This document shows, in pieces, positions 269-5,656 of a stretch of 5,656 nucleotides of DNA. The notes below the pieces were generated by a model. The model was not told the origin of the DNA and did not search any database. It saw only the letters and a list, made by a program, of their open reading frames with translations. The stretch comes from a bacterium (GTDB lineage Bacteria > Patescibacteria > Microgenomatia > Levybacterales > GWA1-39-11), in NCBI GenBank assembly GCA_021825285.1, contig JAKAHW010000069.1:1-5656 (forward strand). The letters run 5' to 3'. Made by a program: the position numbers and the translations under genes. The first letter of the stretch is position 1. Every line of letters begins with the position of its first letter.

Positions 269-967
269 TTAGGTTTCCTTTGCGAAGGTTACGGCAATCA
301 CTTTTCCGGCTCCGTTTTTTTTAAGAGTATGAGCACATTCACGAAGGGTTGAGTAGGTGGTTGCCACATCGTCTACCAATATAATATTACTGTTTTCAAG
401 CCTATTCCCAATATTGTGCGACATAATAAATGCTCCTTTTATATTACTTGCCCTTTCAGTTTTTCCAAGTTTATATTGTGGGCTCGTTTTCTTAACTCTA
501 GTAAGCAAATTCGAGTAGGGCCTTCTTAATTTTTCAGCCATATTTTTAGCCAGAAGCTCCGCATGGTTGTATCCTCTTTGACGAAGTTTTGAAGGATGAA
601 CAGGCACAGATGTAAATAGGCTGATTTTTAGATATCTCACCATTGATTCGTTTTGAATTAGCCCTTCATACATAATTTCTCCCATTATTTTTTCAAGGCT
701 TGAAAGATATGGCGCGTATTTGAATTGGTAAAGAAGTTTTTTCACAACACCTTTATAAGAAACTACGGGAATTACCGCATCAATTGTTAATTTTTTCTTG
801 CATCCCGGGTGTGTGAAACCATCAATTGACGGACGAAGACAAACACAACAAGAGTATATGTTATTGTATGAAATTAGTGAAAAACAATTATCACAAAGAA
901 AATTTCCGATTTTATGACAATTTACGCATTTTTTCGGGAAAAATAGATCTAAAAACGATTCGAACAT
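269..967 (-). CDS. comF: ComF family protein (double zinc-finger / phosphoribosyltransferase fold)
   Basis: A 232-aa protein of usual ComF length. The N-terminus carries cysteine pairs C14/C17 and C25/C28, then a second cluster C40-C41-x-C43 with C56, the metal-binding finger of ComF proteins. The C-terminal half is a type I phosphoribosyltransferase-like domain, with PVHPSKLRQRGYNHAELLAK (122-141), the ComF signature segment, and the PRPP-loop motif ILVDDVATTYSTL (196-208). In naturally competent bacteria ComF is a cytoplasmic factor needed to bring imported single-stranded DNA into the cell; in other bacteria its role is unclear. One oddity is Y205, where the PRPP loop normally has glycine (TTGxT). 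The start is the ATG at 967: an in-frame TAA lies a few codons upstream. No clear Shine-Dalgarno is visible. It follows the 56-aa gene by 57 nt on the same strand, so co-transcription is plausible. No terminator is visible after its stop. Confidence 0.93.
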   Translation of the reverse strand: MFESFLDLFFPKKCVNCHKIGNFLCDNCFSLISYNNIYSCCVCLRPSIDGFTHPGCKKKLTIDAVIPVVSYKGVVKKLLYQFKYAPYLSSLEKIMGEIMYEGLIQNESMVRYLKISLFTSVPVHPSKLRQRGYNHAELLAKNMAEKLRRPYSNLLTRVKKTSPQYKLGKTERASNIKGAFIMSHNIGNRLENSNIILVDDVATTYSTLRECAHTLKKNGAGKVIAVTFAKET

Positions 968-1024: not shown

Positions 1025-1195
1025 CTATAGGTCAGATGTTTTCACGGAGGACTTTTCACGAATTGGCGGGCTCCAACCGCATTTGCTACATTTTTTAATC
1101 TCTCCTGCTCTAATTAACTGCGTCTCTTGTTCATTTGGCTCCCATTTGCATTTTTGACAAATAATTTTGTAACAATCTACACAATTATTATCCAT
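1025..1195 (-). CDS. small zinc-ribbon-like protein, 56 aa, function unknown
   Basis: The frame encodes 56 residues with three CxxC pairs: C5-VD-C8, C13-QK-C16 and C36-SK-C39. The last two, CQKCKW and CSKCGW, are 19 residues apart and look like the two knuckles of a zinc ribbon; the first pair may bind a second metal or be redox active. The rest is charged and soluble, without a signal peptide or membrane segment. Its ATG (1195-1193) shares one base with the stop of the upstream gene (TAATG), and a strong AGGAGGTG Shine-Dalgarno lies 8 nt before it inside that gene. This is good evidence that it is really translated and coupled. The upstream protein also ends in a zinc ribbon, so the two may act together. 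I recognise no family. A binding role for nucleic acid or protein is only inferred from the fold type. Confidence 0.85.
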   Translation of the reverse strand: MDNNCVDCYKIICQKCKWEPNEQETQLIRAGEIKKCSKCGWSPPIREKSSVKTSDL

Positions 1196-2469
1196 TAATC
1201 ACACACCTCCTGGCCGGACTCAGCTGAAAACTGTTCTTTCGTAATTTTACAACTCGGACAAGAATCGCCCACGGGGCCATCTGCCTGGACACCACATTTT
1301 GGGCACTTAAACCACTCCTGCTCCCAGGGCGTTGAAGCAAGCCTTGGAGTGACAGAGTCTACAATTGTTAAAAACTTCTTTCCTCCCCCATTACAACCAG
1401 GTAAAGACCTTATTTCAGCAAGTATTTTCCCAAAAGTAGCATAATCAACTGTATTTGGAACGATTTTTTGATATTTATCTTCCTTTGCGTCTTTTCCTCT
1501 TATTTTTTGAGCGAGCTTTAAGACTGTTAATCCTAGTGCCGCCTCCACCTCTTCCCTTTTTATGCTTCCTCCCAAAAATTTCATCCTGATATATTCCTTA
1601 AGATTATCTGTTAAGCTTTTTGTTGCCTCATCTAAAGTCCAAAGGTGCTCGGGGTTTTTTAAAGCTTCATAAACTTGACTAAACTCCTTATCTTTGTAAA
1701 CAGCATCTGACCTTTTTACGTACTTTATTACGCCTACCATATCCTCTATTTCCCAATTTTTTCCGTTTTTTCTTGCGTCAAGAAATACAGGATTTGCAAC
1801 AATATTAACGATTTTCTCCTGTTGCGATTGCCCATTTAATTTTTCTTCATCAACTCCCAAAGCAATTAAGAGTCGCTTGTTTTCCTCCAAAGTCATATCT
1901 GTTCTAACCGTAAAACCTCTCACTCGCCCATCTTTTTGAACCTGCCAAATATAAGTCTGGGAATCTTCATAATTTATTCCATTAAAACCGCTCCACCCTT
2001 CAGGCGAGGACATAATAGCAACAGATCCGGGAGAAGCGGAAAGCAAGAAATTTTCAACATTTATTAATGAGTTTTTAACAGAACCGTACCTTTCTTGTTC
2101 AGTAGTCGTGTCTACTAATAATTTGTCGTTATAAAGAGGACAAACGATTCTTTCTTTTCCATCTACTACCTTTTTATCCAAAACAATTGGAAAAAGCAGT
2201 CCCTCGCAAAGGTATTCTGTTTTAAAGCCTTGAATATCCTGCTCTATTTTTTGAAATGCACCTTCATAGACCTCGTTAAACCCTCTCCCTTCACGTAAAC
2301 CAATCCTCAAATCATTTGCTAATTGATTTACCTGAAGCGGAACATTAAAACCTGTTCCTTCAAGCTTATAAAATTTATCAAAATAACCTACCGCTCTTGG
2401 CACTTCGGAATATAAAGGGTTGAAGCTATTTTGAACTTCAACACTTCGTGATTCTATTGTTGTATTCAT
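1195..2469 (-). CDS. uncharacterised 424-aa protein with C-terminal zinc ribbon
   Basis: I do not recognise this family. The protein is soluble-looking: no signal peptide, no membrane segment. Its N-terminal two thirds are mixed charged/hydrophobic, with a distinctive Gly/Ser/Pro-rich segment SSPEGWSGF (154-162) followed by YEDSQTYIWQV and a strand-like GRVRGFTVRTDM (181-192). The region from about 262 to 325 is predicted mostly helical by eye. The C-terminus has CPKC (389-392) and CPSC (404-407) separated by 11 residues, a classic zinc ribbon; other cysteines are C88, C110, C359 and C423. I chose the ATG at 2469 because it overlaps the adenosyltransferase stop as ATGA, a common coupling junction; a TTG at 2478 would add three residues. 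It sits between the cobalamin adenosyltransferase and another small zinc-ribbon gene, all likely one transcript under the cobalamin leader. A role linked to cobalamin or nucleotide metabolism is inference from position only. Confidence 0.88.
   Translation of the reverse strand: MNTTIESRSVEVQNSFNPLYSEVPRAVGYFDKFYKLEGTGFNVPLQVNQLANDLRIGLREGRGFNEVYEGAFQKIEQDIQGFKTEYLCEGLLFPIVLDKKVVDGKERIVCPLYNDKLLVDTTTEQERYGSVKNSLINVENFLLSASPGSVAIMSSPEGWSGFNGINYEDSQTYIWQVQKDGRVRGFTVRTDMTLEENKRLLIALGVDEEKLNGQSQQEKIVNIVANPVFLDARKNGKNWEIEDMVGVIKYVKRSDAVYKDKEFSQVYEALKNPEHLWTLDEATKSLTDNLKEYIRMKFLGGSIKREEVEAALGLTVLKLAQKIRGKDAKEDKYQKIVPNTVDYATFGKILAEIRSLPGCNGGGKKFLTIVDSVTPRLASTPWEQEWFKCPKCGVQADGPVGDSCPSCKITKEQFSAESGQEVCD
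1204..1211 (-). promoter_or_regulatory. strong Shine-Dalgarno for the 56-aa zinc-ribbon gene
   Basis: AGGAGGTG on the minus strand is an 8-nt match to the usual 16S rRNA 3' end, with 8 nt to the ATG at 1195. It lies within the last codons of the upstream gene. It is the best ribosome-binding site in the window and decides that the small frame is a real gene, probably translated at a high rate. Confidence 0.85.
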
Positions 2470-2999
2470 CTTTTCCAAACAAAATCTTTTCTTTTCTCTA
2501 AATGGTTTGCAAAACGCGCTGTAGTAAAAAGAAAATCCGAAAGACGGTTTACGTATTTCATAACTTCCGGGTTCAATTCTTCTTTTTTTGATAAAGAAAT
2601 AAGTTTTCGTTCTGCCCTTCTTGCAACTGTTCTTGCTAAATGGAGACTTGAACCGCTCTTGCCTCCTCCAGGCAAAATAAAATTTTTTAACTTTGGCATT
2701 TTTTCTGTCATCTCATCAATTTTTTCTTCCAGATTTTTTGTTTTTCCCTCCAGATTCGCCTCATTTACCAAGGATGTGTTCCCGGCAAGATAGGAACCTA
2801 TATAAAATAGCGTGTTTTGAATTTCTAAAAGCAACTTTATTATCTTTTTGTTTTTTATAAATGAAATTGAAACACCAATAGAAGCATTTAATTCATCTAT
2901 TATTCCGTAGGCATCAGTCCTCAAACTGTCTTTATAAACCCTTTCCCCTGTAAAAAGAGATGTTTTTCCTCTATCTCCTGTTTTTGTATAAATCGCCAT
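2466..2999 (-). CDS. pduO: cob(I)alamin adenosyltransferase, PduO type
   Basis: A 177-aa cytoplasmic enzyme, the usual size for PduO-type enzymes. It transfers the adenosyl group of ATP to cob(I)alamin, giving adenosylcobalamin. Family motifs in order: YTKTGDRGKTSL (4-15, ATP-binding N-terminus), DAYGIIDELNASIG (29-42), ILPGGGKSGSSLHLARTVARRAER (108-131, with R123, R127 and R128), and YVNRLSDFLFTTAR (149-162). The start is ATG 2999: homologues begin with this M-x-IYTKTGD segment, and GAG (3009-3007) gives a modest Shine-Dalgarno 7 nt upstream. The frame stays open to an ATG at 3143, but those 48 extra codons are the riboswitch and terminator and have no protein-family likeness. The gene lies downstream of nrdJ, whose cofactor it makes. 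Its 3' end overlaps the next gene by 4 nt (ATGA). Confidence 0.95.
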   Translation of the reverse strand: MAIYTKTGDRGKTSLFTGERVYKDSLRTDAYGIIDELNASIGVSISFIKNKKIIKLLLEIQNTLFYIGSYLAGNTSLVNEANLEGKTKNLEEKIDEMTEKMPKLKNFILPGGGKSGSSLHLARTVARRAERKLISLSKKEELNPEVMKYVNRLSDFLFTTARFANHLEKRKDFVWKR

Positions 3000-3009
3000 A
3001 TTTTTTCTC

Positions 3010-3035
3010 AAAAAAAACCTCTCGTTGCCGAGAGG
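3010..3035 (-). terminator. intrinsic terminator / attenuator before the adenosyltransferase gene
   Basis: The minus strand reads CCTCTCG-GCAA-CGAGAGG followed at once by eight T. This is a perfect 7-bp stem (8 with the flanking A-T pair) capped by a GNRA-type tetraloop. It lies upstream of the adenosyltransferase start and directly after the riboswitch core, so it is best read as the expression platform, not as the end of nrdJ. The U-tract adjoins the GAG ribosome-binding site, so folding could also affect translation. Confidence 0.85.
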
Positions 3036-3038
3036 TAC

Positions 3039-3146
3039 AAAATTGGCCTGCTCGGGCTCCCCGCCTAAGGCGGGGACAATATATGTTTGTTTTCTGGATT
3101 TAACAGTACCGGCAGTTCCGCCGACTTTCACGGCGATTTCCAAACA
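3039..3146 (-). promoter_or_regulatory. cobalamin riboswitch controlling the adenosyltransferase operon
   Basis: The minus strand carries the conserved cobalamin-aptamer core. GGAAA (3141-3137) leads into a P4 hairpin CGCCG-TGAAAGT-CGGCG (3135-3119), whose loop matches the family's TGAAAAT/TGAAAGT. Then come GAACTGCC and GGTACTGTTAA (about 3118-3100), equivalent to the conserved CTGCCCCGCAACTGTAA. A GC-rich hairpin follows, CCCCGCC-TTA-GGCGGGG (3075-3059). Then GAGCCCGAGCAGGCC (about 3059-3045) resembles the 3' B12-box. TTTGG (3144-3140) can close with CCAA (3046-3043), which fits the small class II architecture better than the btuB-like class I; class is inference. The exact 5' boundary is uncertain. 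In this family adenosyl- or other cobalamin binding lowers expression, here presumably by favouring the terminator at 3035-3010. The site is exactly where feedback on cofactor synthesis would be expected. Confidence 0.82.
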
Positions 3147-3174
3147 TATACTTAAAATCGAAAACTAATCTCCA

Positions 3175-3194
3175 AAAGCGCTAGTATTCGCTTT
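3175..3194 (-). other. short inverted repeat between nrdJ and the riboswitch
   Basis: On the minus strand AAAGCG and CGCTTT form a 6-bp stem with an 8-nt loop, followed by one more T and then GG. The U-tract is too short for a good terminator. It may be a weak terminator for nrdJ or a 5' extension of the riboswitch fold; the sequence alone does not decide. Confidence 0.35.
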
Positions 3195-3211
3195 CACTCA
3201 TGCGCCTTGTC

Positions 3212-3235
3212 TATTCTGAATTAGCATTCAGAATA
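3212..3235 (-). repeat. 10-bp perfect hairpin spanning the nrdJ stop codon
   Basis: TATTCTGAAT and ATTCAGAATA form a perfect 10-bp inverted repeat around a 4-nt GCTA loop; the TAA stop (3223-3221) begins in the loop and ends in the stem. The stem is AT-rich and has no following U-tract on the minus strand, so it is not a standard terminator. It could stabilise the nrdJ mRNA 3' end or act as a weak terminator. Confidence 0.6.
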
Positions 3236-5656
3236 TCCACAGGCGTAGCACTTTTTACATCCTTCTTCGTGCGCAAGACTCGCTCCTCCGCAAGAGGGAC
3301 ACAAATCAAACATTGCAGACGTTGAAGGTTCAGACGAAGAAATGCTTAATTGCTCAAGAACAACCTTGTCCTGTTGTGCTGAAGAAGCAGAATCGGAGAC
3401 AACATGACCATTTGTCATGGAGGAGTGTCCGTTTGTTAAACCATTTGTTTTCCCATTTGGCGCTCCCTGAACAACCCCATTTTTATGGAGATCTTTCACC
3501 ACTCCGTTTACGGCAAACTCAAATTCCTCTGCTAAGACTTTTGCAACGGCATCAGGAACAGAACGTACTCGATTCTCTCCAAATCCAACAGTCCTCATCC
3601 CTCCGATTCCGGAAAGCTGTGCAACAATTTGCCTAACTCTTTCGCGGGATTCAACCGGACTTTGGAGGCGCAAAATTAAAGAAATCATTCTTCCCAAAGC
3701 ATCTGTCATCGCAGCTACATCTGACCCCGATTTTCCAATCGTAACAAACGCTTCAAAAGGATTTCCCTGATCATCCTTATTAAGAGTTATAAATGCATCT
3801 CCTAAAGGAGTCTGAGTTTTGTAGGTAAGACCGAACATAACCGTGGGCCTCTTGCTTATTGCGTGAGCCGGTTTTGGAACTTCGGCTTTTTCCTCTTTTT
3901 TCGGCTCGGTTCTTTCTAAAACTCCTTGTCGGGAACCTTCCCTCATATATGCAATTCCTTTACAACCGAGCTTATAGGCGAGAGTATAAAGTCTTTTTAC
4001 ATCCTCAACCGTATGGGTTTTTGGAGCATTAACTGTCTTTGAAATGGAGGCATCAACATATTTTTGGATTAGTCCCTGGACAGTCACATGATCTTCAGGA
4101 GAGAGATCATTTGCTGAGACAAAATAATCAGGTCTTGTTAATTTTCCGGAAGCAACTTCCGCTTCATGTTTTTTAAACCATTGCTCATAAAGATAATGTC
4201 TTATAACGTGCTCTCCAATTCTGTCTCGGCGGGTAAACTCGAATTCGTAAACCGGTTCAATTCCTGAAGTTGTATTTGCCATTAAGGAGGTCGAGCCTGT
4301 TGGCGCCTGCATCAAAATTACCGAATTTCTGATTCCAAATTTTTTAATATCTTCTTGGATATCTTTTGGAAGCGCTTCTATGAATTTTCCTTTTGGAAAA
4401 AGTTCAGCATCAAATTTCTTAAATGACCCTTTCTCACGAGCTACCAGAACTGATGCTCTATAAGCTTCGTCTCTTATGGTTTTGTAGACTTTTTCGATAA
4501 ATTTCAAAGACGCCGAAGACCCATATCTCATGTGAAGTTTGATAAGAGCATCCCCAAGTCCCATTGTTCCAAGTCCAATTCTTCTCTCTCCTTCGTATTG
4601 AGTCTCCCTAATCCCTTCAAAAACGTAAGGATCCATCTCAACAACATTATCTTGAAATCGAACTGCGGCTCTGACCACCTTTTTTAAGCTATTAAAATCA
4701 AATGCGCCTTTCCTATCTATATCGCCGCCTTTGACTAATGCTGATAAATTAATTGATCCCAAATTACATACTCCCCAAGCAGGAAGACCTTCTTCTCCGC
4801 AAGGATTTACACAATTAATCCTGTTCCAATACCAGTTGTTGTGCCATTTGTTATAGCGCTCCATGAAAACAACTCCGGGCTCGGCAGATTTCCAAGCGGC
4901 TTCTGCGATTAAATCCCAAAGAGCCCTTGCGCGAACTCGTTTTTGAACTATTACTTTTTTGCCCAGTTCCTTCCAGCGATATATGTCTCCATCCCAAACT
5001 GCATCGTATTCAGGGTCTTTTTTATCAGGAAAGATTAAATCCCAATCTCCATCTTTCTCAACTGCTTCCATAAATGAATCTGATACGCAAACCGATAAAT
5101 TCGCTCCGTTAATGCGGGATAAGTCTTGCTTAACGGTTATAAACTCTTCAATATCAGGATGCCAATCCCAAAGCATAAGCATTAACGCGCCGCGTCTTGT
5201 TCCGCCTTGTTGAATTATGTCTTTTGTTGCAACCGAAAACAGCTCAGCCCAATTACAGGGACCTGAAGAAAAACCATTTACCTTCTCTACCCGATTCCCA
5301 CGAGGCCTTAATGAGGAAAGGTTGATGCCTACTCCTCCACCTCGAGCCATAATCTCAACCATCTGTTTTAAAGTATCAAGAATTCCTTCCCGGGAATCTT
5401 TGGGGCTTGGGATGACAAAGCAATTATAATAAGTAACGGCAAACCCAGTTCCTGCGCCTGCTAAAATTCTTCCTCCCGGAACGTATTTAAATCCGGTCAA
5501 AGAGTTGTAGAATTCTTTCTCCCATTTCTTTTGATCTTCTTTTTTTTCAAGTTGCGCTACGGCCTTCGCAACCCTTTTCCACATTTGCTCGGGGTTTTTT
5601 TCTACGGGGGTACCTTTTTTATCTTTTAAAGAATATCTATCTAAAAATACCTTCTC
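3221..5656 (-). CDS. nrdJ: adenosylcobalamin-dependent (class II) ribonucleotide reductase, N-terminus outside the window
   Basis: This cytoplasmic enzyme reduces ribonucleotides to deoxyribonucleotides, using a thiyl radical made with adenosylcobalamin, and works with or without oxygen. The visible part is 811 residues. The frame stays open to the edge, and the 24 codons before the ATG at 5584 (EKVFLDRYSLKD...) look like the normal NrdJ N-terminus, so that ATG is internal and the true start is off the window. Numbering from that ATG: redox cysteine C55 in YYNC, catalytic NPCGE (N260, C262, E264), second redox cysteine C273 in GVCNLGSINL, phosphate loop QAPTGSTSL (426-434), and LGCKGIAYMREGSR (539-552). 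A B12-RNR C-terminal domain follows at about 580-695. After an Asn/Gly/Ser-rich linker comes the cysteine tail: C762/C765, C776/C779, C782, C787. That tail is the family's regenerating/zinc-like element. No intein is seen. The gene lies directly upstream of the cobalamin adenosyltransferase. Confidence 0.97.
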   Translation of the reverse strand, partial: EKVFLDRYSLKDKKGTPVEKNPEQMWKRVAKAVAQLEKKEDQKKWEKEFYNSLTGFKYVPGGRILAGAGTGFAVTYYNCFVIPSPKDSREGILDTLKQMVEIMARGGGVGINLSSLRPRGNRVEKVNGFSSGPCNWAELFSVATKDIIQQGGTRRGALMLMLWDWHPDIEEFITVKQDLSRINGANLSVCVSDSFMEAVEKDGDWDLIFPDKKDPEYDAVWDGDIYRWKELGKKVIVQKRVRARALWDLIAEAAWKSAEPGVVFMERYNKWHNNWYWNRINCVNPCGEEGLPAWGVCNLGSINLSALVKGGDIDRKGAFDFNSLKKVVRAAVRFQDNVVEMDPYVFEGIRETQYEGERRIGLGTMGLGDALIKLHMRYGSSASLKFIEKVYKTIRDEAYRASVLVAREKGSFKKFDAELFPKGKFIEALPKDIQEDIKKFGIRNSVILMQAPTGSTSLMANTTSGIEPVYEFEFTRRDRIGEHVIRHYLYEQWFKKHEAEVASGKLTRPDYFVSANDLSPEDHVTVQGLIQKYVDASISKTVNAPKTHTVEDVKRLYTLAYKLGCKGIAYMREGSRQGVLERTEPKKEEKAEVPKPAHAISKRPTVMFGLTYKTQTPLGDAFITLNKDDQGNPFEAFVTIGKSGSDVAAMTDALGRMISLILRLQSPVESRERVRQIVAQLSGIGGMRTVGFGENRVRSVPDAVAKVLAEEFEFAVNGVVKDLHKNGVVQGAPNGKTNGLTNGHSSMTNGHVVSDSASSAQQDKVVLEQLSISSSEPSTSAMFDLCPSCGGASLAHEEGCKKCYACGYSEC

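What the first reader, a model, noticed from the sequence alone, without database searches (positions are those of the whole stretch)
3039..3146. Cobalamin riboswitch hidden under a false N-terminal extension of the adenosyltransferase
The open frame of the adenosyltransferase extends to 3143, but the extra 48 codons coincide with a cobalamin-aptamer core (GGAAA, P4 with TGAAAGT loop, ACTGCC/GGTACTGTTAA, B12-box-like GAGCCCGAGCAGGCC) plus a terminator. An automatic gene caller choosing the longest frame would hide the riboswitch and mis-start the protein. The spacing and B12-box differ from the btuB type, so it may be a divergent or class II-like member in a lineage where such switches are little described.
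Basis: partly seen in the sequence, partly recalled or inferred. Interest (0 to 1): 0.75.

Follow-up and report, generated by a model that had tools for sequence, protein, structure and literature searches.

The report
B12 riboswitch mis-annotated as protein
A vitamin-B12-sensing RNA switch of a known class sits inside an operon of an uncultured ultra-small (CPR-type) bacterium, where it probably switches off the coenzyme-B12-making enzyme when the coenzyme is plentiful, and a gene caller has misread part of it as the start of that enzyme.

Summary
On the minus strand, 3158-3079 matches Rfam RF01689 (AdoCbl-II riboswitch), 46.4 bits against a gathering score of 36.5. The open frame through it is not protein: the adenosyltransferase (ATR) starts at ATG 2999, and in 17 loci the ATR frame is open through the aptamer in 8 and closed in 9. 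Yet database protein P0039, identical to the window's frame, starts inside the aptamer. The switch lies between nrdJ (AdoCbl-dependent ribonucleotide reductase) and ATR plus an unnamed gene X. RF01689 exceeds its cut-off in 102 of 373 genomes of a related class. Best mechanism (inferred): bound AdoCbl makes L5 kiss L13, P13 closes, the terminator forms, ATR-X is off; unbound, P13's 5' arm and loop pair with the terminator's 5' arm, a pairing that covaries over 46 loci (0 of 5000 permutations reach it; relatedness not controlled). One relative has the switch before class I reductase genes, which fits repression. Known class, new member; some lineage-wide details look unreported.

The parts
3079..3158 (-). 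AdoCbl-II (RF01689) cobalamin aptamer, helices P3-P6
   Evidence: cmscan 46.4 bits, gathering 36.5, model 1-81/81
3108..3115 (-). P5 loop region CUGCCGGU; CUGC 3115-3112 proposed to kiss L13
   Evidence: read from the alignment and sequence; helix names recalled, kissing pairs inferred
3059..3075 (-). extra hairpin CCCCGCC-UUA-GGCGGGG between aptamer and P13
   Evidence: sequence, fold of 3078-2990; absent in L001 and L004, other hairpins stand at this place in some loci, e.g. G322 and G060
3046..3057 (-). P13 hairpin GCC-CGAGCA-GGC; L13 = CGAGCA
   Evidence: fold -3.3 kcal/mol; pyrimidine-CGAGCA or ACGAGCA within 110 nt behind the aptamer in 87 of 108 loci
3051..3055 (-). 5' strand of the proposed antiterminator (CCGAG)
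   Evidence: complementary to 3032-3028; the pairing covaries in kin
3028..3032 (-). 3' strand of the proposed antiterminator (CUCGG), in the terminator's 5' arm and loop
3010..3036 (-). intrinsic terminator: 8-bp hairpin 3036-3017, U-run to 3010
   Evidence: fold -13.4 kcal/mol; pattern scan
2466..2999 (-). PduO-type cob(I)alamin adenosyltransferase (ATR), true start ATG 2999
   Evidence: PF01923 from residue 51 of the long frame, TIGR00636 from residue 52, nearest relatives P0040 and P0041 of 177 aa
3000..3143 (-). spurious N-terminal extension of the ATR frame (TTG 3143; database start GTG 3131)
3221..5656 (-). nrdJ, AdoCbl-dependent ribonucleotide reductase (5' end outside the window), upstream gene
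   Evidence: TIGR02504 572.7 bits, cut-off 399.95
1195..2469 (-). gene X, unnamed family; start ATG 2469 overlaps the ATR stop; C-terminal CxxC...CxxC

Best explanation
This is an AdoCbl-II class cobalamin riboswitch placed inside an operon, between nrdJ and the ATR-X pair, in a CPR bacterium close to Levybacteria. It most likely works as an OFF switch. With AdoCbl bound, the P5 loop (CUGC) kisses the P13 loop (GCA(G)), P13 closes, the terminator at 3036-3017 forms, and transcription coming from nrdJ stops before ATR and X. Without AdoCbl, the 5' arm and loop of P13 (CCGAG) pair with the terminator's 5' arm (CUCGG), the terminator is delayed, and ATR and X are made. NrdJ, which uses AdoCbl, stays outside the control here, while the enzyme that makes AdoCbl from salvaged cobalamin is feedback-regulated. 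Shown here: aptamer, terminator hairpin, gene order, covariation of the antiterminator pairing across kin. Inferred: ligand identity, sign of control, kissing loop, co-transcription with nrdJ.
For: RF01689 above the gathering score. Same order nrdJ-aptamer-ATR in the Levyibacteriota records L001 and L004. In 108 loci (105 places over the cut-off, G001, G005, the window) a first ORF within 250 nt downstream was picked in 107: X family 57, ATR 16, a DUF4430-type cluster 13, others 21; none matches the window's NrdJ. nrdJ or ATR ends at most 250 nt upstream on the same strand in 55 of 108, at most 20 nt in 36, at or inside the aptamer model in 25, leaving little room for a separate promoter. Antiterminator: mean pairing score of a locus's own P13 and terminator 16.26, permuted 13.45 (sd 0.31), 0 of 5000 reach it; in fixed register the pair at P13 -2 is C-G in 19 and U-A in 9 of 33. 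Sign: in G053 an AdoCbl-II aptamer (41.9 bits) precedes an ATP-cone ORF and broken class I reductase genes (PF00268; TIGR02510), while the genome holds a full nrdJ elsewhere: shutting off the B12-independent enzyme by AdoCbl is the expected logic (pathway logic recalled). The antiterminator/P13 logic is published for P. megaterium metE (PMC10653944; passages and section 5 read).
Against: In the window the antiterminator is short (5 bp plus 2): -4.3 to -6.4 kcal/mol with loop closure against -13.4 for the terminator, so it could act only kinetically. In 6 of 46 loci the best complement is only 4 bp. The permutation test does not correct for relatedness. The duplex energies (antiterminator stronger than P13 in 46 of 46, than the terminator in 28 of 46) leave out loop closure and so favour the antiterminator. 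The kissing pairs are 3-4 bp and L5 hardly varies, so covariation cannot test them. Sparing of nrdJ is not universal: in G315 nrdJ lies on the same strand 1.8 kb behind the aptamer, after X and an ORF that looks like nrdR. G053 is one genome and its class I genes look broken. Ligand, sign and transcript structure have no experimental support here; an activating corrinoid riboswitch is on record (PMC10653944).
Confidence: 0.75

Rival explanations
1. The aptamer is real but acts mainly on translation: the hairpin before ATG hides the ribosome-binding site and the U-run is only a spacer.
For: In 45 of 46 riboswitch terminators the 3' half holds an SD-like motif, against 6 of 27 control hairpins in the same loci; the U-run is directly followed by ATG in 24 of 46 against 1 of 27. 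53 of 108 loci have no terminator but the P13 motif near a possible start codon.
Against: In the window the hairpin is 17 nt from ATG, far for a Shine-Dalgarno; the eight-U run is typical of termination.
Confidence: 0.15
2. The hairpin is simply the constitutive terminator of nrdJ and the aptamer is decayed or idle.
For: A strong terminator sits after nrdJ; the window's antiterminator is weak.
Against: Full-length aptamer above the cut-off, same arrangement in L001, covarying antiterminator in kin; a constitutive terminator would cut ATR off from any upstream promoter, and no sigma-70-like promoter was found in 2950-3450 (other promoter types not covered).
Confidence: 0.06
3. The 48 codons are a genuine N-terminal part of the ATR and the RNA match is coincidental.
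For: The frame is open and the database protein P0039 uses 44 of its codons.
Against: RF01689 match; frame closed in 9 of 17 loci; close relatives P0040 and P0041 (177 aa) start at the ATG.
Confidence: 0.01
4. The switch is activating: AdoCbl turns ATR-X on.
For: An activating corrinoid riboswitch exists (PMC10653944, passages read).
Against: There P13 and the terminator exclude each other; here P13 (3057-3046) and the terminator (3036-3017) are separate and can coexist. In G053 the same class of switch precedes class I reductase genes.
Confidence: 0.03

Closest known systems
Rfam RF01689, AdoCbl-II cobalamin riboswitch (clan CL00101)
   Same: whole model matched above the gathering score; P3-P6 core; P13-type hairpin downstream
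   Different: lies between genes of an operon; gene order nrdJ-ATR-X; extra hairpin before P13
Priestia megaterium metE corrinoid riboswitch (PMC10653944)
   Same: order and logic of L5-L13 kissing, P13, antiterminator, terminator
   Different: there the 3' side of P13 pairs with the terminator's 5' side; here the 5' arm and loop of P13 are proposed to do so
env8 cobalamin riboswitch (passages of the review PMC10907184)
   Same: aptamer with a small P13 hairpin that kisses L5 (class II assignment recalled)
   Different: env8 occludes the RBS through P13; the window has a terminator instead, although L004 and others are closer to env8

Membership tests
AdoCbl-II riboswitch (RF01689) | covariance-model score at or above the gathering score | tested here: met
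   46.4 vs 36.5 bits, full length
AdoCbl-II riboswitch (RF01689) | core helices of the model formed | tested here: met
   cmscan alignment; three outer pairs marked non-standard
AdoCbl-II riboswitch (RF01689) | L5-L13 kissing loop with a downstream P13 | tested here: inconclusive
   P13 element present in the window and in 87 of 108 loci by pattern; only 3-4 complementary bases and L5 nearly invariant, so no covariation test
AdoCbl-II riboswitch (RF01689) | binds a cobalamin and changes expression | not testable with these tools
   needs bench work
Cobalamin riboswitch class I (RF00174) | covariance-model match | tested here: not met
   not among the matches to E <= 10 in 2900-3400, and that output reports no same-clan match left out
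Repressing corrinoid riboswitch of the P. megaterium metE type | antiterminator made of P13 bases and the terminator's 5' side | tested here: met
   by pairing and covariation only, with the 5' arm and loop of P13 instead of its 3' side; weak (5 bp) in the window itself
Repressing corrinoid riboswitch of the P. megaterium metE type | repression on corrinoid binding | not testable with these tools
   no assay

The most novel reading that the evidence does not exclude
In this CPR class the AdoCbl-II switch has become an operon-internal valve: it often sits behind nrdJ or nrdJ-ATR (in 25 of 108 loci at or over the stop codon of nrdJ or ATR), mostly spares the AdoCbl-using enzyme (exception G315), and controls ATR, DUF4430/DUF6580 candidate uptake proteins and a large unnamed family X. 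Its terminator version is fused to translation: one hairpin terminates, carries the Shine-Dalgarno in its 3' arm and uses the U-run as the spacer to ATG, while the kissing-loop bases of P13 themselves form the antiterminator.
Probability: 0.5. Interest if true: 0.6.

Novelty: new member of a known kind. Interest (0 to 1): 0.42.

Why it matters
It suggests that coenzyme B12 homeostasis by riboswitch is common in a class of genome-reduced, mostly uncultured bacteria (102 of 373 genomes over the cut-off). It points to an unnamed protein family as the commonest target of that control (57 of 108 loci), a direct lead to its function. It also explains an annotation error: conceptual translation of the aptamer (for example KVGGTAGTV) at the N terminus of adenosyltransferases.

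Tried and rejected

Papers: searches. No paper was listed for cobalamin riboswitch with Patescibacteria or with candidate phyla; one for riboswitch, candidate phyla radiation and cobalamin, off topic by the passages read (PMC10409787); one for riboswitch with Microgenomates, riboswitches as tools only by the passages read (PMC11665869). PMC10653944: abstract, passages and section 5 read; PMC9600662 and PMC10907184: passages read; the other listed papers were not opened. The library lacks most subscription papers, so absence is weakly supported.

Limits of my counts: the first ORF is the longest one starting within 250 nt, mechanically called; one locus (G113) had none there (its ATR starts at 343 nt). 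One terminator locus (G093, no P13 motif) was dropped from the pairing test (47 to 46); 8 of 108 show neither platform by the patterns used. Control hairpins were called at -8 kcal/mol and five T or more, the riboswitch ones at -6 kcal/mol, so the two sets were not called alike. P0068 and P0078 are called aptamer-derived from resemblance to ORFs beginning inside aptamers (G163, G246), not from their own DNA.

Full report
What is there. The minus strand carries, in order, nrdJ (to 3221), a 62-nt gap, an aptamer (3158-3079), an extra hairpin (3075-3059), a P13-type hairpin (3057-3046), a terminator (3036-3017 with U to 3010), ATR (2999-2466), gene X (from ATG 2469, overlapping the ATR stop), a 56-codon ORF with CxxC motifs (1195-1025) and a comF-like gene (967-269). 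The five closest of the 80 loci kept for the ATR are records labelled Candidatus Levyibacteriota or Woesebacteria (50-54% identity). The window's own assembly is not held, so its kinship is by similarity only.

The aptamer. cmscan gives RF01689 AdoCbl-II, 46.4 bits (gathering 36.5), model positions 1-81 of 81. The alignment has P4 with the GUGAAA loop, P5, P6 and the outer helix. RF00174 is not listed to E 10.

The frame. The long frame (225 aa) begins at TTG 3143; the Pfam and NCBIfam ATR models begin at residues 51-52, just after M49 (ATG 2999). Of 17 loci with an ATR behind the aptamer, the window included, the ATR frame is open through at least 40 nt of the aptamer in 8 and closed in 9; the start before xIYTK is ATG in 16 (in G311 the pattern chose a later codon). 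P0039 is identical to the window's frame but starts at GTG 3131; P0066 and P0075 also begin with the same translated aptamer (EIAVKVGGTAGTV), and P0068 and P0078 look like translation of the aptamer in another frame. That makes 5 of the 120 listed proteins (of 510 at E <= 1e-40); 12 of the 120 have more than 12 residues before the conserved xIYTK by the pattern used.

Relatives. RF01689 was over its cut-off in 102 of 373 genomes drawn from the class of L004's genome, and at E <= 0.001 in 186; ATR (PF01923) was found in 262 of 373. I took the 105 listed places over the cut-off, G001, G005 and the window: 108 loci. In 107 a first ORF within 250 nt was picked: 57 X family, 16 ATR, 13 DUF4430-type (Pfam checked on 2 of 13), clusters of 6, 4 and 2 (DUF6580, checked on 1 of 2) and 9 singletons. 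A profile of the 57 finds the window's X at E 2.8e-32, so the window's X belongs to the commonest target. In 55 of 108 nrdJ or ATR ends within 250 nt upstream on the same strand, in 36 within 20 nt, in 25 at or inside the aptamer model. Both nrdJ-switch-ATR-X and nrdJ-ATR-switch-X occur. Exceptions matter: in G315 the order is switch-X-nrdR-like ORF-nrdJ (nrdR by recalled motif), so nrdJ could be under control there. In G053 a good aptamer (41.9 bits) precedes an ATP-cone ORF, two pieces of a class I small chain and the start of a class I large chain, and the genome has a full nrdJ (67% identical) some 60 kb away. That is the expected arrangement if AdoCbl shuts off the B12-independent enzyme, and so favours repression.

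Expression platform. 47 of 108 loci have a terminator-like hairpin with a U-run of the set length (46 used in the pairing test); 53 have instead the P13 motif within 22 nt of a possible start codon, by a loose pattern; 8 have neither. Within the 46, P13's 5' arm and loop pair with the terminator's 5' arm better than permuted partners (16.26 against 13.45, sd 0.31; 0 of 5000). In the 36 that fit one register, the next four positions are Watson-Crick in 28 of 35, 28 of 33, 21 of 32 and 14 of 26 cells. Compensatory forms include UCCCGAG/CUCGGGA, UUCCGAG/CUCGGAA, UCUUUUCGAG/CUCGAAAAGA and GAGCAUCGA/UCGAUGCUC. Against this, 6 loci show only 4 bp and the window 5 bp, and relatedness is not controlled. 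The hairpin's 3' half carries an SD-like motif in 45 of 46 and the U-run is directly followed by ATG in 24 of 46; in 27 control hairpins elsewhere in the same loci the numbers are 6 and 1 (Fisher P 5e-12 and 1e-5). The motif list was my choice, the control set is small and was called with a stricter energy. In the window the ATG is 17 nt from the stem, so it is not a typical case of the fused design.

Mechanism. By the published P. megaterium model (PMC10653944), ligand-stabilised P13 frees the terminator. Here P13 and terminator do not overlap, which fits repression; the antiterminator would use the other arm of P13 and the loop bases that would kiss L5. The expected physiology is feedback: a cell that salvages cobalamin makes AdoCbl by ATR, and plentiful AdoCbl stops further ATR and X synthesis while nrdJ continues. 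Ligand, sign and co-transcription are inferred. No promoter-like site was found in 2950-3450, but only sigma-70 consensus was scanned.

Known or new. The switch is a member of RF01689. The searches named in Tried and rejected listed no paper on cobalamin riboswitches in these bacteria; that is weak evidence of absence.

Noticed in passing
window 1195-2469 (-): Gene X: unnamed family (38 homologues found, the 5 with an organism name all CPR/Patescibacteria), C-terminal CxxC...CxxC, conserved GCNGGG, no family model at E <= 0.001, confident AlphaFold2 model (pLDDT 84.3) without a clear PDB relative; its family is the commonest gene behind AdoCbl-II switches in the class (57 of 108).
   Followed up: partly
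L162 2039-4201 (G053): AdoCbl-II aptamer before an ATP-cone ORF and broken class I ribonucleotide reductase genes, in a genome that also has a full nrdJ.
   Followed up: partly
L184 2057-4201 (G315): Order aptamer, X-like ORF, nrdR-like ORF, nrdJ: here nrdJ may be under the switch.
   Followed up: partly
L149 (G039 C4) and L202 (G340 C73): Two AdoCbl-II aptamers about 1 kb apart in series, the first before a DUF4430-cluster gene, the second before the next gene.
   Followed up: no
P0039, P0066, P0068, P0075, P0078: Database adenosyltransferases whose N termini are, or look like, translated riboswitch aptamer.
   Followed up: partly
L097, L107 (DUF4430) and L214 (DUF6580): Small DUF4430 proteins (cluster of 13 of 108) and DUF6580 proteins (2 of 108) follow the switch; candidates for B12 capture or uptake.
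   Followed up: partly
window 1025-1195 (-): 56-codon ORF with CxxC pairs touching the end of X.
   Followed up: no
window 269-967 (-): comF/GntX-like phosphoribosyltransferase, below the curated cut-offs.
   Followed up: no
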